A stretch of 64,000 nt of DNA from Owenia fusiformis. Lineage: Eukaryota > Annelida > Polychaeta > Sabellida > Oweniidae. Both the position numbers and the translations under genes were made by a program. The notes beneath the pieces are model-generated. The model had not been told where the DNA came from. It worked only from the letters and a program-made list of their open reading frames with translations, and searched no databases. Below are positions 14,201-40,230 of the stretch, piece by piece. Where the stretch lies: assembly GCA_903813345.2 (NCBI GenBank), contig CAIIXF020000008.1:36232867-36296866 (forward strand), in the 5' to 3' direction. Each line of letters starts with the position of its first letter. The first letter of the stretch is position 1.

Positions 14201-14255
14201 ATCAGAAAATAATGATCATCTCACAATGGCAAAATTAATAGAATTTTTTAATGAG
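14201..14255 (+). CDS. PLCB4-like: PLC-beta exon 5: EF hands
   Basis: 55 nt, phase 2 in, phase 0 out, acceptor 'tttcttttcag', donor 'gtaaat'. It reads (L)SENNDHLTMAKLIEFFNE, equivalent to the family's LTVDQLVSFLNE. The exon end and donor are duplicated 33 bp downstream (donor at 14289). Using that copy would add VNRACSLFCNE in frame. Confidence 0.93.
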
Positions 14256-14296
14256 GTAAATAGAGCTTGTTCTTTATTTTGTAATGAGGTAAATAC
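14245..14296 (+). promoter_or_regulatory. Duplicated 5' splice site of exon 5
   Basis: 'taatgaggtaaata' at the exon 5 junction recurs 33 bp downstream ('taatgaggtaaatactg'). The second site is a full donor in the same phase. The 33 bp between them contain no stop, so an 11-residue extension is possible. The first donor is the likely default because it preserves the family's NE-x-QRDPRLNE spacing. Confidence 0.7.
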
Positions 14297-14511
14297 TGAA
14301 CACGAAGCAACAATGAATACTACAAATAACCATGTTTTTACGCATGTTTTTTAAACCTTAAACATATAATTATTATATTAATAGCTCTACATTAAATAGA
14401 AGTTGGAATATCTTAAAATTACAATAAGATAAACAGACCTTGAAATAACTTGTAATTAATAGAACACCTAAATATACAGTTTTAATCCATGCATACTCTC
14501 GTTTTTTTCAG

Positions 14512-14620
14512 AGACAGAGAGATCCAAGACTTAATGAAATTTTATTTCCATTCTTCGATCGGAAACGAGTATTAGAAATTATCAATGATTATGAGGAAAT
14601 TCAGGGGTTTAAAGAAAAAG
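14512..14620 (+). CDS. PLCB4-like: PLC-beta exon 6: end of EF hands
   Basis: 109 nt, phase 0 in, phase 1 out, acceptor 'cgtttttttcag', donor 'gtaaga'. It reads RQRDPRLNEILFPFFD then RKRVLEIINDYEEIQGFKEK. QRDPRLNEILFPF is almost invariant in PLC-beta proteins. A second copy of the phrase 'aaaaaggtaaga' follows at about 14643. Confidence 0.96.
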
Positions 14621-14987
14621 GTAAGAATCTTAAAAAAAGTTAAAAAAGGTAAGAAACGTTATTGCCACAATTAAACATATTGGTATCCAGTCCATTGCCC
14701 AATGGCAACTGGTTGTTTCAACTCAATTGCCAAAAGTGAAAAGCTGTTATCAGTGAGAGTCAAAGCAGCTGTAAGTTTTGAATCTTGTTTAACTAACTTG
14801 AAAACCATGAAAAAATGATATTTTTAGATTTTCAATATCGTGCTTGTAGAAGAAAAAAACTCCACATTATCGTCTAAATATAAAAGATTATATGTCCTAC
14901 TTATTGTATCTTAGAACAGTTCCAATATTGATTCACAATTGCTAAATTAGATACAAAGTAACAAGAATTATTTTTTTGATATTAGGG

Positions 14988-15200
14988 AAGTTAAGCTACA
15001 CTTTTTAAGAGAACTTCCGTGACTATGTAATATTATGAACCCTTGGGAATACTCTCCCCATCTCGATTGTTTTTAAGGACCTAATTACAAGTATTTTTCT
15101 TATACCTTTATTCCCAATCGAACACGTAATAACTACTATTTAGGGGAGAAATAAGCCATTCCACCGTTACTCACGTTTGTGTACAAGTTCTCTTAAAATA
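14988..15200. mobile_element. MITE-like element, family shared with 27462
   Basis: The left end contains 'ttaagctacactttttaag' and 'agagaactt'; the right end 'aagttctcttaaaa' is its inverted counterpart. Ends and interior resemble the element at 27462-27763. The rest of the exon 6-7 intron (to 15731) shows nothing else. Confidence 0.6.
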
Positions 15201-15731
15201 TGTTCCTTATTAATAACCTCACTATTGAATGGAACCTAGATATTAATTAGAAGTTAAATGACAGAATTTTCCATATAATATAATGATACAGTATGAAATT
15301 ACATAATTAGTTCGCTCACTCATGTAAAAATTCTCAATTTGTTGTGTTAATTGGATTAATTAAGAAGAAACATGAATCTCAATGGAACCCTTGTAATTCA
15401 TGTTAAACGAGTAGTAAAGAACAAATGAGTACTTATTAAAAGTATTCAGTTATATTCTGAATTTATGTATTCGAAATGAATAAGAGCATCCTTCTTATAA
15501 GCTGAGATCTCAAATTCATACAGTATATGGGTTCATATATTTCTCTCTTTCAAATGTTGCCACTTGTGCTTTTCAAATGTACTGTACTACAGCATTGAGA
15601 AAAAGTTTGGTATTACTAGTGTTTCCTATTCATGTACTTTTCCTAAACACATTGTCATGAATGAACTACTTTTGCCCACCAACAACATCCAAAAGAAACC
15701 CCTATAAACCATTTATTAACATTTCTTTCAG

Positions 15732-15878
15732 AACAAATGAGTGTAGATGGCTTCTGTCGGTATCTGATGTCTGATGAGAATGCCCCAGTGTTTTTGGATC
15801 GTTTAGAGATCTACCAAGAAATGGACCAACCTCTTGCACATTACTACATCAACTCCTCACATAATACATATCTCATAG
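15732..15878 (+). CDS. PLCB4-like: PLC-beta exon 7: X-box start, catalytic His
   Basis: 147 nt, phase 1 in and out, acceptor 'atttctttcag', donor 'gtaaga'. It reads [20 protein letters not shown] then [19 protein letters not shown] and SSHNTYLI(G). SHNTYL contains the first catalytic histidine of the X box (His311 in PLC-delta1) and the adjacent Asn that helps bind calcium. The exon's last 13 bases plus its donor are the first unit of the 18-bp array that follows. Confidence 0.97.
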
Positions 15879-16610
15879 GTAAGACATATCTCATAGGTAA
15901 TACATATCTCATAGGTAAGACATATCTCATAGGTAAGACATATCTCATAGGTAAGACATATATCAAAGGTAAGACATATCTCATGGGTAATACATATCTC
16001 ATAGGTTAGACATATCTCATAGGTAATACACATCTCATAGGTAATACATATCTCATAGGTTAGACATATCTCATAGGTAACACATATTTCATAGGTAACA
16101 CATATCTCTTAGATTAGACATATCTAATAGGTAAGACATATCTCATAGGTTAGACATATCTCATAGGTAAGACATATCTCATAGATGAGACATATCTCAT
16201 AGGTAAGACATATCTCATAGGTAATACACATCTCATAGGTTAGACATATCTCGTAGGTAACACATATCTCATAGGTTAGACATATCTCTTAGATTAGACA
16301 TATCTCATTGGTTAGACATATCTCATAGGTAAGACATATCTCATAGGTAATACACATCTCATAGGTTAGACATATCTCGTAGGTAACACATATCTCATAG
16401 GTTAGACATATCTCATAGATGAGACATATCTCATAGGTAAGACATATATCATGGGTAATTCATATCTCATGGGTAATTTATGTCTCATAAGTAATACATA
16501 TCTTCTAAGAAATTCATATTTCTTAAGTGAGACATATATCATGGGCAATATATGTCTCATAAATAATACATATCTTCTAAGAAATTCATGTCTTGTAGGC
16601 AATATATTTG
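15862..16610 (+). repeat. 18-bp minisatellite seeded by the exon 7 donor
   Basis: The unit 'acatatctcataggtaag' is copied roughly 40 times. The first copy straddles the exon 7/intron junction, so 'acatatctcatag' is coding and 'gtaag' is the donor. Most copies keep 'ataggtaa'; others have 'ataggttag'. The unit adds six codons (TYLIGK or TYLIGN), and the frame stays open to a TAG at 16007. Downstream donors up to there would therefore lengthen the protein in multiples of six residues. The last copies are strongly decayed. Confidence 0.95.
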
Positions 16611-16981
16611 GGATAACTAATTTCTTGTCTTATATTTGTTTTGAAAAGTTAGAATGACAGAGTTAAAAATTAAAATGATATCCTATGGGGAAAAAGGGTT
16701 TGACCTGGAAACGTTTTGGATGCGTGGTAGGCAATGTTTAATAGACATGGACTCCAAGTGAGTCTTAATGTGTTTATCGTTTCTGCTGAATTGTTATCAT
16801 ATGAAGGATCATTTTCAACTTTTCAGGAACACCATATTTTTTCAATTGATTAGATAACTTCTTTTACATCAATAAATAGCTTTTCCCACGCACTTCCAGA
16901 AAACCCAGCCAACTTGTGACATTTCGCACTCAATGTAATAAAAATACATTTTCACGTACATATATCATATTTTGTTGTTAG

Positions 16982-17045
16982 GTCGACAATTCGGAGGCAA
17001 ATCATCAGTAGAAATGTACAGACAGGTTCTACTATCTGGATGCAG
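16982..17045 (+). CDS. PLCB4-like: PLC-beta exon 8: X box
   Basis: 64 nt, phase 1 in, phase 2 out. It reads (G)[18 protein letters not shown] then GC(R), the conserved X-box helix after the catalytic His loop. The donor 'gttggt' is weak at +3 and +4. It precedes the duplicated exon pair 9A/9B, where a choice of acceptor must be made. Confidence 0.96.
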
Positions 17046-19211
17046 GTTGGTACTGTTTTCTATCTTAACTAATTGAGCCATTTCTTAAATAGGGAACCTT
17101 TCAACATAGCTTAAAGGAACAATATTGTTGTGAACTTAAGAGGGTTAATGGAAGGGAATGTTCCACTTTTTTGCTTCTGCAATTTCCGACAAACCTTTTC
17201 AGTACATTGATTTTATGGGATTTTTCTGGGTATGCAAAAATAGAAAAATTCGAAAGTCGCCTTTTTGATTTTCGGGTACAATATTGTTCACTATGTGCCT
17301 TGTTATATGTAAGACTTCCTATGTCAAGGAATATTGATATTACCTTAAATGTTAAAGACATTTATCTCCTAAATCTTTCATTTCTCTATTATGTGGGAAC
17401 TTCAATTGTTAATATAAGATGAGCAGTGCTAGGCAGTGCCCATGTACCAAACAGTACATTTATTTTGGAACTGATTTCGACAGTTTGATGGCACATATTA
17501 TATTTTTTGTCGAGGGCATGCCACGGCAGATCCCCAAACTGCATAATGTAACATACTTGTATTTTACTCACTCCATCTGTGGGAATATACACAAATTTTG
17601 TGTCACCCACTTCATTGTTAACTATTGTATGTATTATATGAAATAAATAAATAAATAAAAATAAAATAAAAAATAAAAACATTTAACATAAATAGTAAAT
17701 CAGAATTCTGTTCTTGTATTCCTATCATAGATGGTTATCTCAATTAATTGACTGTATTAGCCAGAGAGAGGGCATGCTAACCCTCAATTCCTATTGTTTA
17801 TGTCATAGAGTCTCATGTTCTACTCCCACACAACACAACCTGATTAATGAACAACCTTTCCAAATGTTTGATTTGATGCCTTAAAAAGAGAGCTTCATCT
17901 GCACTATGAGTTAGAGATAATCACTTGATCTAGCCTTAACCAATCAGAATATCAAGAATGGACCAATCAAAATCTAGTTGTACCAGAATCAGAATTACAA
18001 TCACTTAACTTTATCCCTGCATAAGTACCTGTGCATAGTGTCTGTTCAAACTCCTATAAAAGGTCATGAAAGCTACTTTGGGGCGAGGGGGAGGGGGGTC
18101 ATTCTGATCTTATCAACATCAAAACTATATTTATTTGTCCTGTTCTATTTAGAGGATACTGTACTTCTACTTAATTTGGTGCTACTTATTTTGACGGATT
18201 CACTGTTTTGAACACATTTGGCGGCTTCTTAATTTGGCGAACATGCAATATTGAAATGTATATACAATGCATATTTACGATTGAAATATGAAATACTGAA
18301 TTTGGCAGCGACTTAACTTCGTGGACTTCAACAATTTGGTAGATCCGCCAAATTAAAATGGCTACCAAATTAAGTAAAAGAACCATAGTTATAGGCGTTG
18401 TGCCTCAGGGTGCTTAATGCAGGTATCACGATTCACAGATGTAGGGAATTTATGGGGAAATAATCAGATACATCCATGATAATACACAGAGGAATTTAAT
18501 TGAATGAATGATTCCACACGTCTTATTCTGATGTGATTTCAGACCATTCAAGCTGATATTGTCATTAACGAAACTCATCGGGAACAATATTATTTCTTAT
18601 TTATTCAACTAATAAGTTAAGATGGGTTATTTAAGTTGTACAGCTTACGTATGTATTCTATTTTAGGCACCCACCCTTGATTATCCACCATGAGTCATTG
18701 TCACATTCTCATTCAATGACCGTATATTAAAATTATGCGGGGGTTTGCGCTCATTTCAAGCTATATATCTCTTAAATTAAGTTTTAAATACTCTGGAGTA
18801 TTGAAGGTCTATGTAAACCACCTTTTTAATGAAATCACGCATCATATATTATTACATTGTAAAATGTCAAAAACAGGAAAAAATTTAATATGCTCTCATT
18901 TCAAACCATTTGTAGAACCTGACTCATTTTCATCCCACATCTTTTCTGTAATGTGTAAATGTATTTTATGTGAAAATGTACACTCCACTCCATAAGTTTG
19001 GCAACTAGAAGTTGTTTGAAGCTTAATTTTGTTCCCTAATTACAATAAGTTCTGAAATTGATTTATTTTTTTAAATCGCCAAACATAAATAGGCTTTGCT
19101 TAGTGATAAAAAGGGTATGTTGTATCTGATTGCCAAACCTATGAGGGGAAATATATTGTTTATTATTTGTATTTTATAAATTAAATTTAAACTGATATTG
19201 AAAAATCTCAG
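17046..19211. other. Intron 8, with one MITE-like element
   Basis: No exon seen. It contains an AAAT/TAAA microsatellite near 17640-17680 and the element at 18161-18384. Other open frames lack family similarity. Confidence 0.6.
18161..18384. mobile_element. MITE-like element with TIRs
   Basis: The left end 'acttctacttaatttggt' is matched by the reverse complement of the right end 'accaaattaagtaaaagaac'. A second inner pair contains 'aatttggcgg' and 'ccgccaaatt'. About 225 bp, non-coding. Confidence 0.65.
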
Positions 19212-19305
19212 GTGCGTCGAGCTCGATTGTTGGAACGGCAAAGGGGAAGACCAGGAACCAATCATAACACACGGAAAGGCAATGTGTACTGACATACTTT
19301 TTAAG
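19212..19305 (+). CDS. PLCB4-like: PLC-beta exon 9A: catalytic X box, version A
   Basis: 94 nt, phase 2 in, phase 0 out, acceptor 'aaaaatctcag', donor 'gtactc'. It reads (R)[18 protein letters not shown] then [13 protein letters not shown]. The E and D of VELD coordinate catalytic calcium (Glu341/Asp343 in PLC-delta1), and the His of THG is the second catalytic histidine (His356). It differs from 9B at four residues: N/D, G/D, E/N and L/P. A's GKGED and DILFK match vertebrate PLC-beta better, while B has the usual WD. Joining A to B puts TGA at the third codon, so the two should not be used together. Confidence 0.96.
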
Positions 19306-19701
19306 GTACTCCTATTCCCGAGGATAATCTCCTCACTCCAGAGGATTGTGTCCATCCCGAGGATGACCTGTCTTGACATAATCAACAGCTAACCAACACT
19401 GGGATTTGCATTGTTTTCACTAACAGACTGCTAACAAGCACATTTGTGCTATTAATATGGAATAACATGTTTTTGAGATGATTATCTTCTTGTGTTTTCT
19501 GTAGTTTTTTAGCCATTTATTTAAGCTTGTAACAACCTCCGTGGTGACATTTGGGAATTTCAGAATAATATAACTGGGAAAAACAAATTCTATAGAATAT
19601 ACATTATTTCATATGACCAATTGCAATAGTAACAGTGAAACTGCTTTCATAAAACAATTCAATCTTTCATTCTCATCTTGAGTTGGCTTTGTATTTACAG
19701 A

Positions 19702-19771
19702 TATGATCTGGACCCTTAGTTAACATCCTACTGTGTGGGAGGATACGGTTATTCCAAATTTCCAGATCATA
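19702..19771 (+). promoter_or_regulatory. Stem-loop in the intron between exons 9A and 9B
   Basis: An outer 11-bp perfect stem, 'tatgatctgga' with 'tccagatcata', encloses an inner stem of 'atcct' with 'aggat'. It lies about midway between the two alternative exons. It could influence exon choice or could be the remains of a small inverted-repeat element. The sequence alone does not decide. Confidence 0.45.
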
Positions 19772-20167
19772 CCTTTATACACTGGTCAAACAGATAAATG
19801 TTTGGTCAGAGACAATACATAGACTCATATGTTTCATAAAACTACAGTTATATTATTAGCCTGACTGAGCTTAAAACACAGTTTGAAATCCTTGATGATC
19901 CTGCACCTGTTTACAAACATAGGGAGGGGGATGTAGTTTTCAACAGTCCTGTGTTTATACAGTTTATGCTTTTCCTCATTCAAAAACACACCTTGACCAA
20001 GCATTGGGATATCAGTGTTGGCACCACGCAACTGCACAACAGTTTTACACGCTTTAGTTTGTTTTTTGCCGCATTTTCAGATTTCACCCATCCACCCTGT
20101 CCGTTACTGTTGATACGCCCTCATTTCATGAGGCAGGCACACTTGCTTTGTTGAAGGAGAAATGTTT

Positions 20168-20230
20168 ATGTCGATTGTGTTTTTGGAATGTGTTTTGGTG
20201 TGTTGCGTTGAATTAGATTGCTGAATCGTG
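20168..20230 (+). pseudogene. Decayed partial duplicate of exon 9B start
   Basis: 'tggaatgtgttttggtg' followed by 'tgcgttgaattagattgctg' parallels the real acceptor and start of exon 9B ('tggaatgtgttttag', then 'gtgcgttgaactggattgct') about 55 bp downstream. The copy has lost the AG acceptor and has an in-frame TAG. Confidence 0.7.
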
Positions 20231-20249
20231 TTTGTGGAATGTGTTTTAG

Positions 20250-20343
20250 GTGCGTTGAACTGGATTGCTGGGATGGTAAAGACAATGACCAAGAACCAAT
20301 CATCACGCACGGCAAAGCCATGTGTACAGATATCCCTTTTAAG
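20250..20343 (+). CDS. PLCB4-like: PLC-beta exon 9B: catalytic X box, version B
   Basis: 94 nt with the same phases and ends as 9A; acceptor 'gtgttttag', donor 'gtagtc'. It reads (R)[18 protein letters not shown] then [13 protein letters not shown]. All catalytic residues are kept. By my count, 21 of 94 bases differ from 9A over 18 changed codons, of which 14 are synonymous. This is purifying selection on both copies, not a dead duplicate. The Leu-to-Pro change in DIPFK is the most structurally notable difference. Confidence 0.95.
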
Positions 20344-21058
20344 GTAGTCAAACGGCTTCAAATGTTCAGGAGCTGACAGCCTTCAATTCTCATAATTTGT
20401 ATTTCAAATTGTACATTTCTTTAAAAATAAATGTTTGAACAGATTTTGAGCTTTCATTCAACAAGTTAAAAAAATTATCATTTTCTGCATTTAGGCGTTA
20501 ATTTTTGAATTACAATTATGTAGGAATTTTCTGTTTCATGTTTTACAAACCCATATTTGCAAGAATAATACTGCTATGCTATATTTGTTTTTCTCTGACT
20601 ACATACAGTGTATGCATAATTAACATATTCAATTTGTTGAAATAACACTTTTGGTTGACTTTCTGTTTGATTAACCCAATCTGCAATGGTTTTGGTTATA
20701 TATAATATTATTAATATATAACTATACAATATTATCCAATTAAAACATCTCATTTATTCAACTCTCAAGCCTGTATCTCTCATAGAAAGAGAATATAAAT
20801 ATTCATGGATAATTCAAGAACTATTCAAGTGAACGATTATCTAAAAATTACTGAATAAAAGTTATAAAGATACTCTATTGAGATAGCAATTATTTCAAAC
20901 CAAAAACAGACTATTTAAAAACAACAAGGATTTCAAAATGGATATCCCGACAATGAGTATGCCATCTATTATTGTTTGAATGAATTTAAATGTAACTCTC
21001 TATTTTTTGTATTGTTTATTGTTTACATTGTACTTAGCAATCTATTTTTGGTATTTAG
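20344..21058. other. Intron after exon 9B, nothing notable
   Basis: AT-rich intron without recognisable repeats or exons. Confidence 0.6.
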
Positions 21059-21138
21059 GATGTGATTTATGCCATAAGAGATACTGCGTTCGTGACATCA
21101 GATTACCCTGTGATACTATCATTTGAAAACCATTGTAG
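21059..21138 (+). CDS. PLCB4-like: PLC-beta exon 10: X box
   Basis: 80 nt, phase 0 in, phase 2 out, acceptor 'tggtatttag', donor 'gtgaga'. It reads DVIYAIRDTAFVTSDYPV then ILSFENHC(S). The Glu of SFENHCS is the remaining catalytic acid (Glu390 in PLC-delta1). The exon joins in frame to either 9A or 9B. Skipping exon 9 would bring an immediate TGA. Confidence 0.97.
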
Positions 21139-21679
21139 GTGAGAAAGATAGCTTTTTATTTAGTATGGTTTGAGGGAATTTACAGAGAATAGGGAGTTTA
21201 AGCTAGCACTGTTTTTCAAAACCAAAACGCAAACGTAAGTTATTTAAGCAATGTATTTGTATGGGCAATTGGTCATATGTCTGGGTTGGCGTTTTGATTT
21301 TATATTCAAGCTTGAACATCCAAATGTTGAAATGAACAAACAGTGGTGATAAGTATTTCCATGATTTTATGTTTTCACTAGAATTTCTCAAAACAGGCTG
21401 AATAAATGAAAACGATAGGCAAAATTAATGAAACCATAAAAACATAGGAAAAGTTGAAAAGTCTCTAAAAACAACAGGCACTTTTGTGAAAACAATCGGT
21501 GAAAATCGCCTGTTGCCTGCTGCTAATGAAACCTGTCGTGCATTTAATTTAATAACGTTACGAATTAAATACCTAAAGATTAATTGTTTACACTTTATGC
21601 TCTGAATTTTACTGCCACTTTAAAATCACCAAATGATTGCTTTTAAAATGATTCATGTTTTTAATGATTGAATTTTCAG

Positions 21680-21764
21680 TAAACCTCAACAATACAAGAT
21701 AGCCAAATACTGTGAAGAGATATTTGAGGATATGCTCCTAAAATCTCCAATTGCTGGTCACAAT
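21680..21764 (+). CDS. PLCB4-like: PLC-beta exon 11: X box
   Basis: 85 nt, phase 2 in, phase 0 out, acceptor 'gaattttcag', donor 'gtaagc'. It reads (S)KPQQYKIAKYCEEIFEDM then LLKSPIAGHN. Vertebrate orthologues have SKYQQYKMSKYCEDLFGD here. The 541-nt intron before it and the 315-nt intron after it show no features. Confidence 0.96.
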
Positions 21765-22079
21765 GTAAGCATAATGCATAATGTAATATACATGTAGTAT
21801 GTAATATAGTTTACAGTGCATATTGAAATATAGTTTACAGTGCATGGTTAAAATATTAGATACATGTCAGAGTTTACTTTTTAAAGACCTGGTATTAATG
21901 GATAATTGAAAGAAATTGAAGTTAAATTCATGTTTCTTACTGGATAAAAATAAGATCTTTAACCATTTAAAGTGTCATAAAATTATTATATAAACAAATG
22001 TTCAGTATAATGGAGGAATTATATATGATTCGGATTGTATAGTTTCATTAAAAACAACTATTTAATTTCAATATTCCAG

Positions 22080-22170
22080 CTTGAACCAGGGGTTCCCCTT
22101 CCTTCCCCAAGCCAGTTGAAACGAAAAATACTCATCAAGAACAAGCGGTTAAAACCTGAAGTCGAAAAAC
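22080..22170 (+). CDS. PLCB4-like: PLC-beta exon 12: end of X box
   Basis: 91 nt, phase 0 in, phase 1 out, acceptor 'aatattccag', donor 'gtaagt'. It reads [19 protein letters not shown] then [11 protein letters not shown]. [18 protein letters not shown] is the classic closing motif of the X box, with the phosphate-binding lysines. Confidence 0.97.
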
Positions 22171-22403
22171 GTAAGTGACAGAAACTACATGTAGCTACCC
22201 TAAAATTGCAGCATTAAAATCTATTTTCATGTCACCACCAGAAGTCATGACATGTTGTTATAGTCTCCAACTTTTTTTGTGGATGGTGTTCAACGATTGG
22301 TGCTTGGCATCTGTGACAAATGGGAGGTGTTGGAATTTTGCTTCTTCTATGAGATATAGTTTGGCATCTGTTGCAATTGTAACACATTAGTCTAACCTTG
22401 TAG

Positions 22404-22517
22404 GCCAGTTGGAGCTCTATATGAAAGGACAGACCGAAGTATCTGAAGACATTCCAATAGAAGACGCAGATCCTGATCCAGTCGTTGCTGTAGATGGTGA
22501 GGACGGCCCAATGAATG
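22404..22517 (+). CDS. PLCB4-like: PLC-beta exon 13: X-Y linker
   Basis: 114 nt, phase 1 in and out, acceptor 'aaccttgtag', donor 'gtgagt'. It reads RQLELYMKGQTEVSEDIP then an acidic tract IEDADPDPVVAVDGEDGPMN. The QLE start matches the family. The rest is the variable, negatively charged linker that covers the active site in resting PLC-beta enzymes. The position is certain, but the sequence itself is not conserved. Confidence 0.9.
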
Positions 22518-23338
22518 GTGAGTTTTGATTGCCTCACAACACGATTCAAACAAATCAAGACAACATTATTTAAGGAGTTTATTAAAGGCTTATTAGACTC
22601 TATACCTAGTTTAGACCTGTGATTACACTGTTTACAGTTTCTAAGATTTCCCACCTGTTGTACTATTCACATTAATTTTATTGTATTTTATACCTTTTTG
22701 ATGTATGCAGATTTGTGTGTTATATGAATGCATTTAATTCCTCGCATGTGGCCCCCTCTTTGGGTGTGTCATGGTTACATTGGGTGGTTCGCATTGTGCT
22801 ATGACATAGTGCATGTTGGTTCTGGTTTTATGGTTTAAATGGCTTAATTTATAAGGGATCGGGAAAAATATTATTTGTATATATAATAATAAATAAAAGA
22901 TTTATTGTATCAAACCAGTGTATCTACTTTTGATAGATAAAAGGGCTTGCCTGTTTTTACTCTCCTTCGACAACTCATCTAGATCTTTGTCAGCTATAAT
23001 TGTTATCATGCAGGGATATTTTAAGCAAGGGTTTTGTGTTACTAGGTACTCAGGTCCTTATTTGGTCAGCTTTGAATGCATTCACAGGAAGCGCTCTATA
23101 AACGGTTTCGAAACAAGAGGAGCACTTTATACTCACGCTATAATTAAGTCACATGCGCAGTAACACTGCTTAAGAGCCTGCATCACTTTATGCCTTTATT
23201 TTTGCTGCTGCATAGTTTATAGCACTAAACCAGGGCCCGTGAGGTGTTGTACAATAGCAGGTCCGCAGTGAATCATGTGACACACCACAAGTGAATCATG
23301 ACACACCTGATGAAGGTTTTCTCTTTTTACTTTCACAG
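22518..23338. other. Intron 13, nothing notable
   Basis: 821 nt without an exon or a clear repeat. Confidence 0.6.
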
Positions 23339-23446
23339 AATCTTCCTCAGATGATGATTTGGTCCCAGAAATAGTAATGGAAAAAGAAAAATTGTTGGAA
23401 AAAGAAAAATTGGAAAAAGAAAAATTGGCAAAAACCAAGATGTCGG
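23339..23446 (+). CDS. PLCB4-like: PLC-beta exon 14: X-Y linker with EKEKL repeats
   Basis: 108 nt, phase 1 in and out, acceptor 'tactttcacag', donor 'gtacaa'. It reads ESSSDDDLVPEIV, then MEKEKLLEKEKLEKEKLAK and TKMSG. A 15-bp unit, 'gaaaaagaaaaattg', occurs three times in the coding frame. This is a coding minisatellite giving a charged helical stretch. It is assigned by phase and splice signals rather than sequence conservation, so it could be optional: skipping it keeps the frame. Confidence 0.82.
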
Positions 23447-23959
23447 GTACAATTATAATATGGCATTTAATATATGGAGTCCATGTTGTCTCTATTGACA
23501 TTAACAAATAAGGGATCTGGAATGCTTGGCAATGCTACTTTTGATGCTTAAACTGGGCTGTTATATTGTTGTCAGGATTAAACTCAACATTTATTTCTAG
23601 AGAACACTAGCTTTGCATGCTAAATCAATGTTGTAGCATGGTATCATCCTGCACATCATGCATGCTCTATCAACCTCTATATTATGCTTTCTAGAGGCAA
23701 GCTGTACTCTCTAGCAAATACAGGTCTTTATGCCCCCTATTGTCTCAATGTCTCCCAACAGAAAAGCCTCTATTTCCAAAGGGAGCACACAGGTCTCGTA
23801 ATAAGGGAGTCCAATCAGAGACACAGACAGTGGCACATGGAAAGAATCCCCAGAGAGTTCAACACATGAACTTGTACTGCAGAAGAGACAAGATTAACCT
23901 AAATATACCATAGTAAATGAATTATGTTTTTCATTTTCCATGCACGATCGCCTATCTAT

Positions 23960-29151: not shown

Positions 29152-29293
29152 GGCAGTCTTACGGCAGATGAAGAAGCTGCGTTAATGTCTAGTTATCACT
29201 ACACTAGCGCCACCACAAACATACACCCATACCTCTCATCTCTCGTCAACTACGCACAACCTGTCAAATTCCAAGGATTTGATATCGCTGAAG
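29152..29293 (+). CDS. PLCB4-like: PLC-beta exon 16: linker end and Y-box entry
   Basis: 142 nt, phase 0 in, phase 1 out, acceptor 'ctttgtttctag', donor 'gtaaca'. It reads [20 protein letters not shown] then [20 protein letters not shown] and [17 protein letters not shown] with [11 protein letters not shown] is diagnostic for PLCB4-class enzymes. Confidence 0.97.
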
Positions 29294-29711: not shown

Positions 29712-29796
29712 AGAGAAATTTCACATTTAATATGTCATCGTTTAACGAGTCAACTGGTCTCGGTTATTTAAAGAATGAGGCTGATAAGTTTGTGAA
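29712..29796 (+). CDS. PLCB4-like: PLC-beta exon 17A: Y box, version A
   Basis: 85 nt, phase 1 in, phase 2 out, acceptor 'ttaattttcag', donor 'gtatcctt'. It reads (E)[18 protein letters not shown] then LKNEADKFV(N). The first Ser-Ser of MSSF includes the phosphate-binding serine of the Y box (Ser522 in PLC-delta1). Its end KFVN followed by YNKRQ fits vertebrate PLCB4 well, so A is closer to the ancestral form at its C-terminal half. The length is not a multiple of three, so A and B cannot both be included. Confidence 0.95.
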
Positions 29797-29934
29797 GTAT
29801 CCTTCATAAGCAGCATGTTCATTAAATATATGTTTGTTTATTGTTAATTTAACATTCCTGCATGTACACATCTACCATTGAGGGTCCAGTTTTGAAACAC
29901 AGTTAAACATGTGAAGTATAATACCTCTTTAAGT

Positions 29935-31450
29935 GGAACATTTTTCAGAGTCACATGTCCAATTGACTTAATGTTAAATGGATCTGGAACACTTTTCAGA
30001 GTCCCATGACCAATTGCCTTAATGTTAAATGGATCTGGAACACTTTTCAGAGTCCCATGTCCAATTGACTTAATGTTAAATGGATCTGGAACACTTTTTG
30101 GAGTCCAACGACCAATTGACTTATTGTTAAATGGATCTGGAACATTTTTTGGAGTCCCATGACCAATTGACTTAATCTTAAATGGATCTGGAACACATTT
30201 TGGAGTCCCATGTCGAATTGACTTAATGTTAAATGGATCTGGAACGCTTTTTGGAGTCCCATGTCCAATTGACTTAATGTTAAATGGATCTGGAACACTT
30301 TTTGGAGTCCCATGACCAATTGACTTATTGTTAAATGGATCTGGAACATTTTTTTGGAGTCCCATGACCAATTGACTTAATGTTAAATGGATCTGGAACA
30401 CTTTTTGGAGTCCCATGACCAACTGACTTAATGTTAAATGGATCTGGAACACTTTTCAGAGTCCCATGACCAATTGACTTATTGTTAAATGGATCTGGAA
30501 AACTTTTTGGAGTCCCATGTCCAATTGACTTAATGTTAAATGGATCTGGAACACTTTTTGGAGTCCCATGACCAATTGACTTATTGTTAAATGGATCTGG
30601 AACATTTTTTAGAGTCCCATGTCCAATTGACGTAATGTTAAATGGATCTGGAACACTTTTCGGAGTCCCATGACCAATTGACTTATTGTTAAATGGATCT
30701 GGAACACTTTTTAGAGTCCCATGTCCAATTGACGTAATGTTAAATGGATGTGGAACACTTTTCAGAGTCCAATGACCAACTGACTTAATGTTAAATGGAT
30801 CTGGAACATTTTTCAGAGTCCCATGTCCAATTGACTTAATGTTAAATGGATCTGCAACACTTTGGAGTCCCATGACCAATTGACTTAATGTTAAATGGAT
30901 CTGGAACATTTTCAGAGTCCCATGTCCAATTGATGTAATGTTAAATGGATCTGGAACACTTTTCGGAGTCCCATGACCAATTGACGTAATGTTAAATGGA
31001 TCTGGAACATTTTTCAGAGTCCCATGTCCAATTGACGTAATGTTAAATGGATCTGGAACACTTTTCGGAGTCCCATGACCAATTGACTTAATGTTAAATG
31101 GATCTGGAACATTTTCAGAGTCCCATGTCCAATTGATGTAATGTTAAATGGATCTGGAACACTTTTCGGAGTCCCATGACCAATTGACGTAATGTTAAAT
31201 GGATCTGGAACATTTTTCAGAGTCCCATGTCCAATTGACGTAATGTTAAATGGATCTGGAACACTTTTCGGAGTCCCATGACCAATTGACTTAATGTTAA
31301 ATGGATCTGGAATACTTTTTGGAGTCCCATGATCAATTGACTTAATGTTAAATGGATCTTGAACACTTTTCAGAGTCCCATGACCAATTGCCTTAATGTT
31401 AAATGGACTTCAATAAGTGGAACACCTACACCTTTAAAGTGGAACACTTT
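29935..31450. repeat. 51-bp minisatellite
   Basis: About 29 copies of a 51-bp unit: 'ggaacacttttcggagtccc', 'atgaccaattgacttaatgt', 'taaatggatct'. Because 51 is a multiple of three, long minus-strand frames with a 17-residue period (PDPFNIKSIGHGT) stay open; these are not genes. It lies between exons 17A and 17B. Confidence 0.94.
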
Positions 31451-31807
31451 TTAGAGGTTCCAAAGTCATAACCTATGAGCCTTGCACAAAGTTTTCCTCA
31501 AATCCACCAATGCTCCTTATCTACAAGTAGAGGTGAGGCATATACAACGGCTTAAAGCAAGATTTTTACATAATAATTCGAGTCATATATCCATATTTAA
31601 ATACAATCTGCTTCATGGAAAATTGTTAAATGGTGATTCAATCAAAACTGGCCCCTGAATTTGAGTATTTGGCAGTATTACACCAGTAACTGAAAGCACA
31701 GATTTCACATCGTGCGAAGGAGAAAACATACTGTAAAAAGACGTTGTCAATATAGAGCTTATTTGCATTTTGTCTGGAAATAATTTTTGCCAAATATTAA
31801 TACAGTA

Positions 31808-32918
31808 CAGTAAAACCTGAGTTAGTGAACACATCTCTCTAGTGAACACCTATTAACAGTGAATGTTTTTATTGGGCAAAACCTTTTTCTCCCATTGACT
31901 CCCATGTTAAAGTGCAATCCTATAGTGAACACCTACCAACTATGAACAGTGAACACTAAACCCTGGGAAAATCAATTGAATTATCCTGTCTCTAGTGAAC
32001 ATTGAATCAGATATAAGATTTCTCGCGGATTTTCTGCAACTGCCTTATCAGAGTTAAGCAGTTTATGTTTATATTACCTGCCAAAAATAATTAAAAGGTC
32101 AATTTGAGATCTTGATCTCTTTTATTGAAACAGGTGTGACTAATTATAATTCTTAATAAGCTTTGTTTTTGTAACACAGGATATGCGTCTGGGATTGATT
32201 GCTTGGAGATAATCTGGCTAACTATTATTACCTCTATCTGCTAAGTCCCAACTTAATCTTTTTTCTCATCCCGTCAATTTAAAAAACGATTGAATCAAAA
32301 TTATAATTCATGATCATTTCACTATTAACTGCATCTATCATGTCCTTTAACTAATTCAATAAAGTCCTTTAACTGACTCAAATGTCTCAAAAATTCCACT
32401 ATTTAAAGGACCATCTTGATGAGATAAAAAGAATTATATAGAGATAAAAATTTGACAATAAAAGGATGAACCATTCAGATGACAGTCAGTCTAAAATAAG
32501 TCAGTTTGTATATAGCATTACAACAAATTAAATACTTAACGCTTGAATGTCATGGGTTAATATGGGTAGAAAATACAATTTAAATTTATTATTCAAATAT
32601 GAATATGTTTTAATTCTTTTTAAGACTCATTTTATTTTAGTTTGATAAAATGTGCTGTTTTAACCAACATGGAATTGTGGATATTTTTCGATTACATGCA
32701 CCTTAATGTAAGAGTGCCACTGTTAAAAAAGTGTATATCTAAATAAATAAATAATTAATAAATGAATAAATAAATATTCCCTCCTCTCTTTAAATAGCTT
32801 GTCTCTTTATATAATATGGCAAAATGCCGCGAAATCAAATCATTGCTGTAGTGAACACCTACTAACAGTGAACATTTTTTCTTGGCAAAAAATTGTTCAC
32901 TATACGCAGGTTTTACTG
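31808..32918. mobile_element. Non-autonomous pogo/Tigger-like DNA element
   Basis: The left end 'cagtaaaacctgagttagtg' pairs with the right end 'cactatacgcaggttttactg' as terminal inverted repeats, and each end is flanked by TA, as expected for a TA target duplication. The interior (1.1 kb) repeats 'gtgaacacctantaacagtgaa' motifs near both ends and has no transposase frame. CAGTAAAACCT ends are typical of pogo-like elements; the family name is inference. Confidence 0.7.
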
Positions 32919-33689
32919 TAAATCCTTTATATACGGGCACCTGAATAAGGAACCACTTTTCTGGTCCCGAATTCCATTCATCTACTCAAGTTAAAAACAT
33001 GAAATATGAACACCTAATAATTTGAATGGGTAAGCCCAGCCAACAGATGTTTCGATACTGTTTTTGATAAACTACAAAAATACACTCAGTTAAGATGTGA
33101 TATAATGCCAATATTTTATAGGTGTATACTGTATACCTTGATGTTGTTTAGATTTACATGCATTTTGCTGCTTAAAGAACCCCCTTTATGTTATGAAGGG
33201 ACCATCTCATATATTTCACTCTAAATCCTACATGCAATTGCTTGTTTAGTGGCTAGATGAGGCTGTTTGAAACTAAATGCAAAAATCATTTTTCAAATAA
33301 TTATATTTTTTTTAAAAATCTCCCTTTTTCTTAAAATGGTTTTGATAACATTAATGGGTGGGTGTATGTATGGGTCCTATATTAAGATAGATTTTAGGGC
33401 AAAGCATTTGAGATGGCCCCTTGGGAAACTTAAGTGACCAAGATCCGTTTGTTGCCTTAACATGAAATAAAAATCTTTAGATCTTTTAAGAGATGAATTG
33501 GATTGAATTTTACAAGTATAAAGTGACAAAGTGACTCTCAATGCAATCATGTAACAACACATACTCATATATAAAATGTATTATATGCTTTGATTTGATA
33601 TTAGTATATTTTATATTTTTGTTCATTATTTTAATTTGATCTTTAGTATTGCCTTTATTTATTTAAAGTAATTTTCTTGCTTTGCAGCT

Positions 33690-34235
33690 TGCAGCACCAT
33701 GCTCCAATGCATTTGAAACATTGTCCATTTTTTTACCCCAATGACCAATGCATTATATATTTTTATACGCTACCCATGCATTGTTAAAATTCTTCCCACA
33801 CTTGCCCATACATTGTTTAAATATTTCCAATGTTTGCACTTTGAACACTGATTATTGTTAGTCAATTTATTATCATTTACATTTTGTGTACAATATAGGT
33901 CACTACATGTAACTGCCTTAATGGCATTATATGGTGGACATATTTTCATGACCCATACATTGTTCAATATTCCCTGTATTTGTACTGCTTCCCATGGATT
34001 CCTGAAATACTGTACTTCCAAATACCATATTCATATAGATGGTGTACATTGACCCATTGATTGTTCAAACGATTTATGTCACACGCTCCCCTCTCTATAT
34101 TAACAGATAACCTATTATATGTTGAATTTTTCCCATACTTTCTGCCCATGAATTGTTCAATGTTCCGGTGTTGACACTCTACCAATGAATTGTTCAATGT
34201 CTCCCATGTACAAACTACCCATGGATTGTTTACAC
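33690..34235. repeat. Degenerate minisatellite before exon 17B
   Basis: Irregular repeats of 'cccatgnattgttcaat' with 'nttccc' spacers continue almost to the exon 17B acceptor. The 32919-33689 stretch before it has no recognisable feature. Confidence 0.6.
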
Positions 34236-34298
34236 GTTCACGATGCATCCATGTTGTCAGTAATGGCTATAATAGTTGCATGCGCATGTGTGTTGTAG

Positions 34299-34383
34299 AA
34301 CGAGATATTGCCTACAATATGTCATCTTTCAACGAGAATGTTGCCCTTGGCCTGCTTAAAAACACAGTCATTGAAATGAATGA
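34299..34383 (+). CDS. PLCB4-like: PLC-beta exon 17B: Y box, version B
   Basis: 85 nt with the same phases as 17A; acceptor 'gtgttgtag', donor 'gtatcctt', identical to 17A's over eight bases. It reads (E)RDIAYNMSSFNENVALGL then LKNTVIEMN(D). NMSSFNE is unchanged, but by my count only 14 of 29 residues are shared with 17A. B keeps the I-x-Y before NMSSF that vertebrates have, whereas A keeps the later part. Splicing A to B would hit a stop within the exon. Confidence 0.93.
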
Positions 34384-35139
34384 GTATCCTTGAATTTCGT
34401 AAAGTTTTGTAGTTCGTGCAGTAGTATCATGACATCACAAAATCATCTCATTGCTCCGTGTCAATCATTGTGATGTCACACTTGCCTCGAATGTAAAAAC
34501 ACATTATGATAGGTTTATTTTGATGCTGAAACGGTCAAAACTGGCTACACAGAAATACATCAATATAATAATATTCATGTTTATCTATTTAATAGAAATC
34601 TAGGATTATGTCTCATGTTCAACAATTGCCTGGTTCTATTTCCAAAAGATGAAATTTGGCAAAAAAGCATGGCATTGTGTTGATGTTGTATACATTGGCA
34701 GTGTTGTAGTAGTTGTAGCATTAGAATTGTTGTTGCTTTATTATAAAAGAAATAAAAGGTGAATATGTATATGTGAATCGTAAGAAAGAAAGGCAATAGC
34801 AAAGCATAGCAAAGTGAAATGTTATCTATTTATTCAGTTCACCTTTCATTTCTTAAATTCTTTTGTTCATTACATATAATTGTTTCTTGCGCATTTTGAA
34901 ATTTTAATTTTTTGCATTTGTTGAGAAAATACTTATCCTGTGCCATTCTGCATGCAAATGAGGCCTAAAGTTGATATTAATGTCATATACAATATACATG
35001 TATGACAGAAATTTGCTCATTTCACAAAATTTCACATTAACATTCACATCAAAATCTAATTGAGGAAGTATTGATTCTACAATTTTCTTTATTCATTTCT
35101 AGTTTTTGTACAGAATTATCACATATTTAAATCTCTGCA
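34384..35139. other. Intron after exon 17B, nothing notable
   Basis: No exon or clear repeat seen before the 21-bp array. Confidence 0.55.
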
Positions 35140-35690
35140 TTGAAAAGATTCATATTGAAATTGATAACATTCATATTCAAATTGACAACATTCATTTTCA
35201 AATTGATAACATTCTTATTGAAATTGATAACACTCATATTGAAATTGATAACACTCATATTGAAATTGAAAACATTCACATTGAAATTGATAACATTCAT
35301 ATTCAAATTGATAACATTCATTTTCAAATTGATAAAATTCTTATTGAAATTGATAACATTCATATTCAAATTGATAACATTCATATTCAAATTGATAACA
35401 TTCTCATTGAAATTGATAACATTCATATTCAAATTGATAACATTCATATTCAAATTGACAACCATCAAATTGATAACATTTATATTCAAATGCACAACCT
35501 TCAAATATCAAATTGATAACCTTCATATTCAAATTGAAAATATTCATATTCAAATTGATTACATCAATATTCAAATTGATAACATTCACATTCAAATTGA
35601 CAATGTTCAAATATCAAATTGATAACATTCATATTCAAATTGATAACATATTCAGCTTTAAAGAGATTATATAATATTCAAATTGATAAT
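35140..35690. repeat. 21-bp minisatellite
   Basis: About 25 copies of 'cattcatattcaaattgata'(a). Several frames stay open on both strands with a seven-residue period because 21 is a multiple of three. The array ends about 50 bp before exon 18. Confidence 0.93.
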
Positions 35691-35737
35691 ACGCTCAATA
35701 GTATCATGCTGTATGTAAATGCTCCTTAACCAGTCAG

Positions 35738-35810
35738 TTATAACAAGAGACAGTTGAGCCGTATCTACCCAAAGGGAGGAAGAGTTGATTCCAGCAATTA
35801 CATGCCTCAG
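35738..35810 (+). CDS. PLCB4-like: PLC-beta exon 18: Y box
   Basis: 73 nt, phase 2 in, phase 0 out, donor 'gtaaga'. It reads [19 protein letters not shown] then NYMPQ. [18 protein letters not shown] is the Y-box core containing the inositol-phosphate-binding Arg and Tyr. A 'cag' four bases earlier (35733) is a competing acceptor that would break the frame. Confidence 0.97.
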
Positions 35811-36021
35811 GTAAGACTCACACTTTCTATGGTTTATGGGGATTTGTGTTGTTTTCTGGTGCTAATCACTGCATTACATAATACACATAAAGCATATTGT
35901 ATATTTTAAAGAATTGTGTAACTTTACTAAGAAGGTACTGCTCATTGAAGTTGAATTTGGCTGGTATTAGCATTTACCTTTGATGTTTGAATATTACCCT
36001 GTATTCAACATATTATACCAA

Positions 36022-36381
<360 letters not shown>

Positions 36382-36531
36382 TAATGTATTTCATATATTT
36401 ATTTCCATATTTGGAGATTCTGACCTCAAAATTAATGCCCATAGGCATTGTTTAGAAAGCTTATTCTTTAAGTGGGTTCTATTTTCCTATACATGCTAAA
36501 AATATTTTTTTCAATTTTCAACTGAAAGTAA

Positions 36532-36954
<423 letters not shown>

Positions 36955-37035
36955 TAAGGGTAGATTTCAAGATGCTGGGATATTTAATTTAGTTTACTTA
37001 CTTGTAGTTGTATGGTTGTAATAGGTTTATATGGA

Positions 37036-37620
37036 ATTGTAGGTTGTACTGCCAAGCTGTGCTACATATTGCAGTGTTGTTTATATTGTAGGTTGTGCTA
37101 CCTGACCTAGCTGTGCTACGTATTGCAGTGTTGTTTATAATTGTAGGTTGTGCTACCTGACATAGCTGTACTACGTATTGCAGTGTTGTTTATATTGTAG
37201 GTTGTGTTACCTGACCTAGCTGTGCTACGTATTGCAGTGTTGTTTATATTTGTAGGTTGTGCTACCTGACCTAGCTGTGCTACATATTGCAGTATTGTTT
37301 ATATTGTAGGTTGTGCTACCTGACCTAGCTGTGCTACGTATTGCAGTGTTGTTTATATTGTAGGTTGTGCTACCTGACCTAGATGTGATACATATTGCAG
37401 TGTTGTTTATATTGTAGGTTGTGCTACCTGACCTAGCTGTGCTACGTATTGCAGTGTTGTTTATATTGTAGGTTGTGCTACCTGACCTAGCTGTGCTACG
37501 TATTGCAGTGTTGTTTATATTGTAGGTTGTGCTACCTGACCTAGCTGTGCTACGTATTGCAGTGTTGTTTATATTGTAGGTTGTGCTACCTGACCTAGCT
37601 GTGCTACGTATTGCAGTATA
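37036..37620 (+). repeat. 52-55-bp minisatellite seeded by the exon 21 acceptor
   Basis: Eleven copies of a unit containing 'attgtag' plus the first coding bases of exon 21 ('gttgtgctacctgacctagc') and on to 'tattgcag', followed by 'tgttgtttat'. The last copy is the real acceptor and exon start; the ten upstream are intronic decoys. Reading from any decoy gives [17 protein letters not shown] then TAG, so only the last copy is productive. The minus-strand frame across the array is an artefact. Confidence 0.96.
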
Positions 37621-37679
37621 TGAAGAGACTGGCAAACTTATAGGACAGCGGATTCTACCTTTGGATGGCCTGCAGGCAG
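37580..37679 (+). CDS. PLCB4-like: PLC-beta exon 21: C2 domain
   Basis: 100 nt, phase 0 in, phase 1 out, donor 'gtaagt'. It reads [19 protein letters not shown] then [14 protein letters not shown](G). I choose the last copy of the repeated acceptor because it alone continues into the conserved A-V-Y-E and [14 protein letters not shown] segments. Confidence 0.97.
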
Positions 37680-37932
37680 GTAAGTCGAATAATAGTTAGT
37701 CGTGCCCTCTTCTGAGATGCTCTTGAAAGTAGACAGATTTTGAGCGTTAAGTTTTTGTTTTCATGCTAAATTGATGTACTTTTTATCTAAAATATTGGTC
37801 ACCTACATGTAACCAGTTTTTATCAAAATCAGATTTTCACGGCAAGGATTTAAGATGGTTTCATTGTGAATTTGGTTTTGAAGTTTGAATCTGTACTTCT
37901 GTAGTATTTTCAAAGTTGGGTTTGATTTCCAG

Positions 37933-38037
37933 GTTACCGTCATATATCTCTTAGAACAGAAGGCAACTTTCCACTTTCTCTACCAACTGTGTTTTGTCGC
38001 ATCATCATACATACATATGTACCAGATCGCTGGGGAG
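37933..38037 (+). CDS. PLCB4-like: PLC-beta exon 22: end of C2 domain
   Basis: 105 nt, phase 1 in and out, acceptor 'tgatttccag', donor 'gtgagt'. It reads [17 protein letters not shown] then [26 protein letters not shown] and the TYVPD motif end the C2 domain in this family. Confidence 0.97.
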
Positions 38038-38166
38038 GTGAGTGATTTTCTTCAGGATATTTACTTAAAGGGCTAATAACCTAATAGCTGTATTCTATGT
38101 AAAATAGATCTGTTTCATAATGATATGTATGGGGTATGTATGGGCGGGCGGCGTCTCACTTTTCAG

Positions 38167-38850
38167 CTTGTCTACAGGTTTCCAGCCAAACCATTTGAGG
38201 GATTCATCTGAAATTTTCAGGGATGTTTCTACATATCAACGTCAAGAATTGATTAGTTTTTGGGCATTCTGGGTAAATTTTAAGGTGGCCATTTTGGATT
38301 TCCTGTCCTAAAATCTTCACTTTCAAGACTTGTCTACAGGTTTTCAGCCAAACCATTTGAAGGATTCATCTGAAATTTTCAGGGATGTTTCTACATATCA
38401 ACGTCAAGAACTGATTAGTTTTTGGACATTCTGGGTAAATTTTAAGGTGGCCATTTTGGATTTTCCGTCCTAAAATCTTTACTTTCAAGACTTGTCTACA
38501 GGTTTCCAGCCAAACCTTTTGAGGGATTCATCTGAAATTTTCAGGGATGTTTCTACATATCAATGTCAAGAACTGATTAGTTTTTGGGCATTCTGGTTAA
38601 ATTTTAAGGTGGCCATTTTGGATTTTCTGTCCTAAAATCTTCACTTTCAAGACTTGTCTACAGATTTTCAGCCAAACCATTTGAGGGATTCATCTGAAAT
38701 TTTCAGGGATGTTTCTACATATCAATGTCAAGAACTGATTGGTTTTCGGGCATTCTGGGTAAATTTTAAGGTGGCCATTTTGGATTTTCCATCCTAAAAT
38801 CTTCACTTTCAAGACTTGTCTACTGGTTTCCAGCCAAACCATTCAAATTT
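38167..38850. repeat. 162-bp tandem repeat, four copies plus a partial
   Basis: Copies start at 38167, 38329, 38491, 38653 and 38814 with 'cttgtctac'. Each holds 'agccaaaccatttgaggg', 'gggatgtttctacatatca' and 'aaggtggccattttgga'. Very similar copies imply recent expansion. No exon sequence is included. Confidence 0.93.
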
Positions 38851-38976
38851 TTACATATGTTACACAGTGATAAGTTCTAGAGCTGATTAACTTTTCTGCG
38901 GCCATCTTGCTTTCTTGGTCAACAAGACCACAATGCTGTGTTTTAGGTACAATATTGTTCACGTCTTTGCCTTGTT

Positions 38977-40160
38977 TATCCCAAACAACTATAAGAGATG
39001 ACTTTATATTTCAGATTTGATGGATGCTCTATTTGATCCCAAACAACTATAAGAGATGACTTGATATTTCAGATTTGGTGGATGCTCTATTTGATCCCAA
39101 ACAACTATAAGAGATGACTTTATATTTCAGATTTGATGGATGCTCTATTTGATCCCAAACAACTATAAGAGATGACTTGATATTTCAGATTTGGTGGATG
39201 CTCTATTTGATCCAAAACAACTATAAGAGATGATTTTATATCTCAGATTTGGTGGATGCTCTATTTGATCCCAAACAACTGTAAGAGATGACTTTATATT
39301 TCAGATTTGGTGGATGCTCTATTTTTTGGTGGATGCTCTATTTGATCCCAAACAACTATAAGAGATGACTTTATATTTCAGATTTGGTGGATGCTCTATT
39401 TGAGCCCAAACAACTATAAGAGATGACTTTATATTTCAGATTTGATGGATGCTCTATTTGATCCCAAACAACTATAAGAGATGACTTGATATTTCAGATT
39501 TGGTGGATGCTCTATTTGATCCCAAACAACAATAAGAGATGACTTTATATTTCAGATTTGGTGGATGCTCTATTTGATCCCAAACAACTATAAGAGATGA
39601 CTTTATATTTCAGATTTGGTGGATGCTCTATTTGATCCCAAACAACTATAAGAAATGACTTTATATTTCAGATTTGGTGGATGCTCTATTTGATCCCAAA
39701 CAACTATAAGAGATGACTTTATATTTCAGATTTGATGGATGCTCTATTTGATCCCAAACAACTATAAGAGATGACTTTATATTTCAGATTTGATGGATGC
39801 TCTATTTGATCCCAAACAACTATAAGAGATGACTTGATATTTCAGATTTGATGGATGCTCTATTTGATCCCAAACAACTATAAGAGATGACTTGATATTT
39901 CAGATTTGGTGGATGCTCTATTTGATCCCAAACAACTATAAGAGATGACTTGATATTTCAGATTTGGTGGATGCTCTATTTGATCCCAAACAACTATAAG
40001 AGATGACTTTATATTTCAGATTTGGTGGATGCTCTATTTGATCCCAAACAACTATAAGAGATGACTTTATATTTCAGATTTGGTGGATGCTCTATTTGAT
40101 CCCAAACAACTATAAGAGATGACTTTATTTTTCAGATTTGGTGGATGCTCTTTTTGATCC
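38977..40160 (+). repeat. 58-bp minisatellite seeded by the exon 23 acceptor
   Basis: About 20 copies of 'tatatttcag' plus 'atttggtggatgctctattt', 'gatcccaaacaa' and 'ctataagagatgactt'. The final copy is the real acceptor and start of exon 23. Every upstream copy keeps a good acceptor, but reading from it gives DLVDALFDPKQL then TAA. One partial unit lies near 39322. Copies differ mainly by 'gatgg' or 'ggtgg' and 'ttgat' or 'tttat'. Confidence 0.96.
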
Positions 40161-40230
40161 CAAACAAGCAGCAGACAGAAGAGCTGAGCAGATGCAAGAG
40201 ATGGGTATTGATAAGAATGATATTAGCGAG
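40136..40230 (+). CDS. PLCB4-like: PLC-beta exon 23: Gq-binding helix-turn-helix
   Basis: 95 nt, phase 1 in, phase 0 out, acceptor 'tttatttttcag', donor 'gtaagg'. It reads DLVDALFDPKQAADRRAEQM then QEMGIDKNDISE. V-x-A-L-x-x-P followed by RAxQM is the proximal C-terminal region just after C2, where PLC-beta proteins bind activated Gq. The last repeat copy is chosen because only it runs on into this segment. Confidence 0.96.

What the first reader, a model, noticed from the sequence alone, without database searches (positions are those of the whole stretch)
14201..40230. Six exon-edge duplications in one gene suggest a recurring mechanism
Donors of exons 5 and 7 and acceptors of exons 9B, 19, 21 and 23 have all been tandemly duplicated with adjoining coding bases. 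They range from two-copy (33 bp, 55 bp, 129 bp) to long arrays (18, 52 and 58 bp). Chance placement of minisatellites across more than 40 kb of mostly intron would rarely hit exon edges so often. Possible causes are a repair or replication process that favours splice-site sequence, or selection that keeps one intact copy and lets extra copies build up on the intron side. I know of no described class of this kind.
Basis: inference. Interest (0 to 1): 0.85.

Follow-up and report, generated by a model that had tools for sequence, protein, structure and literature searches.

The report
Tandem-repeated exon edges, called "mirages"
In this animal's phospholipase C-beta gene several exon ends have been copied head to tail into the neighbouring introns; the same is seen in other sampled genes of the genome, and it matches a little-known phenomenon described before in amphioxus rather than a new class.

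Summary
The gene is a PLC-beta with an open frame. All six named exon edges have duplicates that include coding bases and the splice site: three long arrays (exon 7 donor 18 bp, exon 21 acceptor 54 bp rather than 52, exon 23 acceptor 58 bp) and three two-copy duplications (exon 5 donor, exon 9B and 19 acceptors). Homology to solved PLC-beta runs without a gap across the junctions, so the outermost copy is probably the one used. The class is described: "mirages" in amphioxus. New here are the host (12 large contigs, 33% GC; fits the annelid Owenia, not proven) and a measured rate: 17 of 380 exon edges in 68 sampled loci. "Intron side" follows by itself if splicing uses the outermost site. "Chance would rarely do this" is overstated: arrays cover 24% of the window, and the gene's excess is 7 edges against 2.8, or 4 against 2.3, depending on the cut-off. 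Elsewhere edges are duplicated about 2 to 2.5 times as often as matched intron points, but the small second sample does not show it and slower decay of the conserved copy explains part. Best reading: ordinary tandem duplication tolerated because splicing removes it, with at most a modest bias to exon edges.

The parts
5649..46535 (+). PLC-beta gene (its first exons lie upstream of 5649), 30 exons plus alternates
   Evidence: open frame to stop with GT/AG ends; PDB matches PLC-beta 3qr0 (E 7e-211), 3qr1 and PLC-beta-3
14201..14255 (+). exon 5; its last 13 coding bases and donor (14243-14262) recur at 14276-14295 (offset 33)
   Evidence: 19 of 20 identical, 0 of 1000 shuffles
14512..14620 (+). 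exon 6; possible decayed copy of its donor at 14636-14661
   Evidence: 3 of 1000 shuffles reach the score
15862..16575 (+). 18-bp array spanning the exon 7 donor (exon end 15878); 17 coding bases inside
   Evidence: TRF 39.7 copies, 84% match; 8 decoy donors identical over 9 bases to the authentic one
20150..20257 (+). two-copy duplication of the exon 9B acceptor (exon start 20250)
   Evidence: 0 of 1000 shuffles; offset 51
35996..36230 (+). decayed, gapped two-copy duplication of the exon 19 acceptor (exon start 36157), offset about 130
   Evidence: 75 identities in 112 columns, 0 of 1000 shuffles
37055..37617 (+). 54-bp array spanning the exon 21 acceptor (exon start 37580); 38 coding bases inside
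   Evidence: TRF 10.4 copies, 95% match; four upstream 54-base copies identical to the functional one
38978..40167 (+). 58-bp array spanning the exon 23 acceptor (exon start 40136); 32 coding bases inside
   Evidence: TRF rows of 58 bp, 95-97% match; 12 upstream acceptors within 2 bits of the authentic one, each leading to a stop
38156..38843 (+). 162-bp array wholly inside intron 22 (no exon edge)
   Evidence: TRF 4.3 copies: example of the intronic arrays that form the background

Best explanation
Ordinary tandem duplication (slippage or unequal exchange), very frequent in this genome, sometimes takes a segment that straddles an exon edge. If the spliceosome keeps using the outermost copy (first donor, last acceptor), the extra copies are removed with the intron, so the duplication is nearly neutral and can grow into a minisatellite. 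Duplications inside exons are lost because they change the protein. The result is the class known as 'mirages'. Shown: the arrays, their coding content, their recurrence in other genes. Inferred: which site is spliced, the mutational process, near-neutrality.
For: Tandem arrays cover 23.6% of the window and 10.3% and 5.7% of two gene samples. Edge-spanning arrays were read in TCP1/Cpn60, kinesin, myosin, ABC-transporter and tRNA-synthetase genes. 17 of 380 sampled edges duplicated. The PLC-beta protein built with the outermost sites aligns without a gap to two solved PLC-beta proteins at all six duplicated edges. All 9 strong upstream acceptors of exon 21 and all 12 of exon 23 would bring in a stop; read-through at exon 7 allows 7 in-frame decoys of 6 aa each and then a stop. 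In amphioxus the Adh3 data and globin RT-PCR suggest regular splicing (PMC3087553, passages).
Against: If duplication were uniform, edges should be hit as often as intron points; in the wider sample they are hit about 2 to 2.5 times as often, and in the window 1.7 to 2.5 times. Four upstream copies of exon 21 are identical to the functional copy, so local site strength cannot tell them apart; no RNA was available to show which is used.
Confidence: 0.68

Rival explanations
1. A duplication process biased to exon edges. For example, in a highly polymorphic outbreeding animal, exons are islands of conserved homology, so recombination and its unequal products would start there and end in the intron.
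For: 17 of 380 edges against 6.7 expected, P 0.0003; 14 of 377 against 6.6 without any hand-set edge, P 0.0065, and 12 of 68 loci against 5.9, P 0.006; gapped test 17 or 18 of 380 against 7.3 to 8.7, P 0.0005 to 0.003, with window 7 of 63 against 2.8 at its loosest cut-off; seed model 15 spanning arrays against 6.2, P 0.0003; array ends 14 within 5-100 bases inside exons against 13 in the first 200 intron bases, P 0.027.
Against: No excess in sample 2 (1 of 95 against 1.2) and none clear in the window at strict cut-offs (4 of 63 against 2.3); 11 of 443 against 6.8, P 0.08, for perfect copies. The functional copy at an edge is conserved, so its duplicates stay recognisable longer. Heterozygosity was not measured.
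Confidence: 0.25
2. Selection favours extra splice-site copies, for instance as splicing enhancers, as regulated decoys, or as a source of in-frame protein length variants (exon 7 units add 6 aa each).
For: Exon 7 decoys are in frame for 7 copies; 11 of 22 clearly measured units are multiples of 3 (my tally), P 0.08.
Against: At exons 21 and 23 each strong decoy leads to a stop; half of those 22 units are not multiples of 3; 39 of 54 arrays in the samples were not counted as edge-spanning.
Confidence: 0.04
3. Intron gain by tandem duplication (Rogers model): the introns beside the arrays were born from these duplications.
For: The amphioxus authors propose mirages as a route to new introns (PMC3087553, passages); fission yeast and potato cases are described (PMC4974935, passages).
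Against: Units here hold intron sequence and one splice site of an existing junction, not an exonic AGGT segment alone. Intron age was not tested.
Confidence: 0.03

Closest known systems
'Mirages' of amphioxus (Adh3, troponin C, globins BflGb6 and BflGb9, PGBD5; PMC3087553 and PMC3902484, passages read)
   Same: Minisatellite-like tandem repeats spanning donor or acceptor edges with coding bases; many copies keep GT/AG; units of tens to over a hundred bases; several genes; protein apparently not interrupted.
   Different: Other genome: 12 large contigs hold 477 of 498 Mb and the window has 33% GC, against 19 chromosomes in Branchiostoma lanceolatum (PMC9673378, passage). Units up to about 260-290 bp and up to about 40 copies; a rate over a gene sample is given here. 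Splicing and length instability were studied in amphioxus, not here.
[quoted passage not shown] ATP2A1, potato RdRp; PMC4974935, passages read)
   Same: Tandem duplication makes extra splice sites whose product can be spliced out.
   Different: There a new intron is made; here copies of an edge accumulate inside a flanking intron.
Ordinary intronic minisatellites
   Same: Same kind of array; 39 of 54 arrays in the samples were not counted as edge-spanning, three of these touching an edge with 5 or fewer coding bases.
   Different: Here the unit includes coding sequence and the splice site.

Membership tests
Mirage (exon-intron boundary minisatellite) | Tandem repeat unit spans an exon-intron boundary and includes coding bases | tested here: met
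   Exons 7, 21, 23, exons 5, 9B, 19; 17-139 coding bases inside 18 arrays
Mirage (exon-intron boundary minisatellite) | Both 5' and 3' splice boundaries are affected | tested here: met
   8 donors and 13 acceptors among 21 hits in 443 edges
Mirage (exon-intron boundary minisatellite) | Occurs in several genes of the genome | tested here: met
   12 to 14 of 68 other loci, plus the kinesin array at L024
Mirage (exon-intron boundary minisatellite) | Regular splicing is not disturbed | not testable with these tools
   No RNA; protein continuity across the junctions fits
Mirage (exon-intron boundary minisatellite) | Copy number unstable between haplotypes or cells | not testable with these tools
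   One assembly only
Rogers-type intron gain | Duplicated unit is an exonic segment with AGGT that supplies both splice sites of a new intron | tested here: not met
   Units contain intron sequence and one splice site of an existing junction
Rogers-type intron gain | Intron is young | not tested

The most novel reading that the evidence does not exclude
Exon edges are preferred birthplaces of tandem duplications in this genome, about two-fold over introns, perhaps because conserved exons act as islands of homology for recombination between divergent haplotypes; several percent of all splice sites then sit beside ladders of decoy sites, some identical to the real one, and are still spliced correctly by position.
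Probability: 0.26. Interest if true: 0.72.

Novelty: new member of a known kind. Interest (0 to 1): 0.5.

Why it matters
It suggests that mirages are not an amphioxus oddity but can touch about 4% of exon edges in another animal genome. Arrays in which decoy and real splice sites are identical over dozens of bases are natural experiments on how the spliceosome chooses by position (exon definition). They also confuse gene annotation and offer raw material for intron change.

Tried and rejected
Rejected: overlap of arrays with edges by raw coverage as a test of excess (15 of 64 expected, 3 found; in the gapped version 21 of 64 expected at score 28, 10 found). It counts every copy, so first-copy nulls were used instead. 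Rejected: base composition as the cause (arrays not spanning an edge 34.8% GC, non-array noncoding 33.6%, edge-spanning arrays 38.9%, coding 41.9%). Not counted as edge-spanning after reading: L018 39-bp array (starts after the donor), L025, L061, L059, L006, L032 17-bp, L004 18-bp, L038; L030 34-bp with only 4 coding bases. Of 474 possible edges in 68 loci 94 had no splice-site call and were dropped; 9 edges were set by hand after looking at arrays, at the outermost copy, which favours hits and intron-sidedness; hence the automatic repeat, in which 2 of 377 edges (L018 and L030 donors) had copies on both sides because an inner copy was called. In the gapped test one edge (L066) also had a weak exon-side match. 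The 15 spanning arrays are a hand-read list. L024 was left out of the counts because its array had drawn attention. Searches for a published class; their listings showed nothing on annelids or on a genome-wide rate. Subscription papers are not held, and the original Adh3 and troponin C papers were not read.

Full report
What is there. The window is animal DNA, 64 kb of a 498-Mb assembly. A PLC-beta gene runs from before 5649 to 46535 on the + strand; I placed 30 exons and the alternates of exons 9 and 17, with GT/AG ends, and the joined frame is open to a stop. The best solved relatives are PLC-beta 3qr0 and 3qr1 (cephalopod, as I recall) and PLC-beta-3.

The six duplications. Three are two-copy: exon 19 acceptor, exon 9B acceptor and exon 5 donor. 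None of 1000 dinucleotide shuffles reached the score in any of them, though exon 5 (36 against a shuffle maximum of 35) and exon 9B (49 against 44) are close. Exon 6 donor is a possible seventh (3 of 1000).

Which copy is used. No RNA was available. The protein obtained with the first donor and the last acceptor aligns to the two best solved PLC-beta proteins without a gap at the six duplicated edges. Four upstream copies at exon 21 are identical to the functional copy over 54 bases. The strong upstream acceptors of exon 21 (9) and exon 23 (12) would each introduce a stop. At exon 7 the first seven decoys add 6 aa each in frame before a stop; nine of 37 downstream GT sites score as high as the authentic donor. 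The choice must therefore be by position, which fits exon definition (general knowledge).

Is it more than chance in this gene? Not clearly. Arrays cover 23.6% of the window; 3 of 64 edges lie in them against 15 by coverage. Coverage counts all copies, so I compared with the chance that a random intron junction lies in the first copy of a duplication. Gapless: 4 of 63 edges against 2.33, P 0.21. Gapped, which sees all seven: 7 against 2.79 (P 0.02), 6 against 2.66 (0.05), 5 against 2.53 (0.11), 4 against 2.28 (0.19) as the cut-off rises. A seed-length model gives 3 against 1.1 to 1.7, P 0.09 to 0.23. The window was chosen for this feature, so the lower P values flatter it.

Other genes. Exons were located with five Pfam families (PF00063, PF00225, PF00118, PF00133, PF00664) and 69 stretches were fetched. 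Reading the sequence showed clear cases: TCP1/Cpn60 genes L003, L004, L005, L007 and L008 (two donors and one acceptor); kinesins L010, L011, L018 (acceptor and donor), L019, L024 (18 copies of 159 bp) and L026; myosins L030 (acceptor, decayed), L031 and L032; ABC transporter L047; tRNA synthetase L066. In the uniform gapless test 17 of 380 edges were duplicated on the intron side, expected 6.7, P 0.0003. By sample: 16 of 285 against 5.5 in the first, 1 of 95 against 1.2 in the second. With the window: 21 of 443 (4.7%, interval 3.0 to 7.2%) against 9.0, P 0.0003; for perfect copies 11 against 6.8, P 0.08. The gapped test gives 17 or 18 of 380 against 7.3 to 8.7, P 0.0005 to 0.003. With no hand-set edge: 14 of 377 against 6.6, P 0.0065; 12 of 68 loci against 5.9.

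Side of the copies. With nine edges set by hand at the outermost copy, 0 of 443 edges had an exon-side copy. With automatic edges 2 of 377 had copies on both sides, L018 and L030 donors, where an inner copy had been called; the gapped test adds a weak exon-side match at L066. A tandem copy of exon end plus intron start leaves two candidate sites. Using the outer one puts the copy in the intron; using the inner one inserts the unit into the protein. So intron-sidedness is what purifying selection and splice choice give by themselves.

Reading of the excess. It is about two-fold, and the second, small sample does not show it. A bias works in its favour: at an edge one copy is held by selection, so old duplications remain visible longer; the ratio falls from 2.3 to 1.6 when only perfect copies are counted. 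Composition is not the cause. I keep an edge-preferring mechanism as a live rival, not as the best explanation.

Known class. Tandem repeats over exon-intron boundaries are called mirages in amphioxus: Adh3, troponin C, globin genes, PGBD5 (PMC3087553 passages; PMC3902484 passages). The globin paper reports that they seem not to disturb regular splicing, are unstable in length, may explain intron gain, and may be general in cephalochordates. I know of no earlier report outside amphioxus, and the listings of my searches showed none. The genome here has 12 large contigs summing to 477 of 498 Mb and 33% GC in the window. Branchiostoma lanceolatum has 19 chromosomes (passage). Owenia fusiformis has 505.8 Mb and 12 chromosome-scale scaffolds (PMC9977687 passages), which fits, but the species is not proven.

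Verdict. Real and recurrent, but a member of a described class and largely what dense tandem duplication plus splicing tolerance would give. The open, testable point is whether exon edges are preferred.

Noticed in passing
29712-29796, 34299-34383 and 35738: Alternate 85-bp exons 17A and 17B (51% identical in DNA) both end at GTATCCTT, and the shared downstream acceptor follows TCCTTAAC: signals typical of a U12-type (minor spliceosome) intron (motifs recalled), here with two alternative donors.
   Followed up: partly
19212-19305 and 20250-20343: Alternate 94-bp exons 9A and 9B in the catalytic X domain, 78% identical, probably mutually exclusive.
   Followed up: partly
G000:C9:37986009-37994334 (- strand): Twelve matches to about positions 18-84 of the myosin head within 8.3 kb of one myosin gene: perhaps a large cluster of alternative exons.
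   Followed up: no
L024:1213-4056 (oriented), G000:C2:23266359-23269174: Kinesin exon start repeated 18 times with 159-bp period including 114 bases that match the kinesin profile.
   Followed up: partly
L018:6755-7501, L030:2402-2537 (oriented): Arrays that begin at or just after a donor with no or about 4 coding bases: edge-abutting rather than edge-spanning.
   Followed up: partly
window and samples: 11 of 22 clearly measured edge-spanning units (my tally; ambiguous ones left out) are multiples of 3, P 0.08: a weak hint that inner sites are sometimes tolerated.
   Followed up: partly
56144-57693: 476-bp unit repeated 3.3 times downstream of the gene.
   Followed up: no
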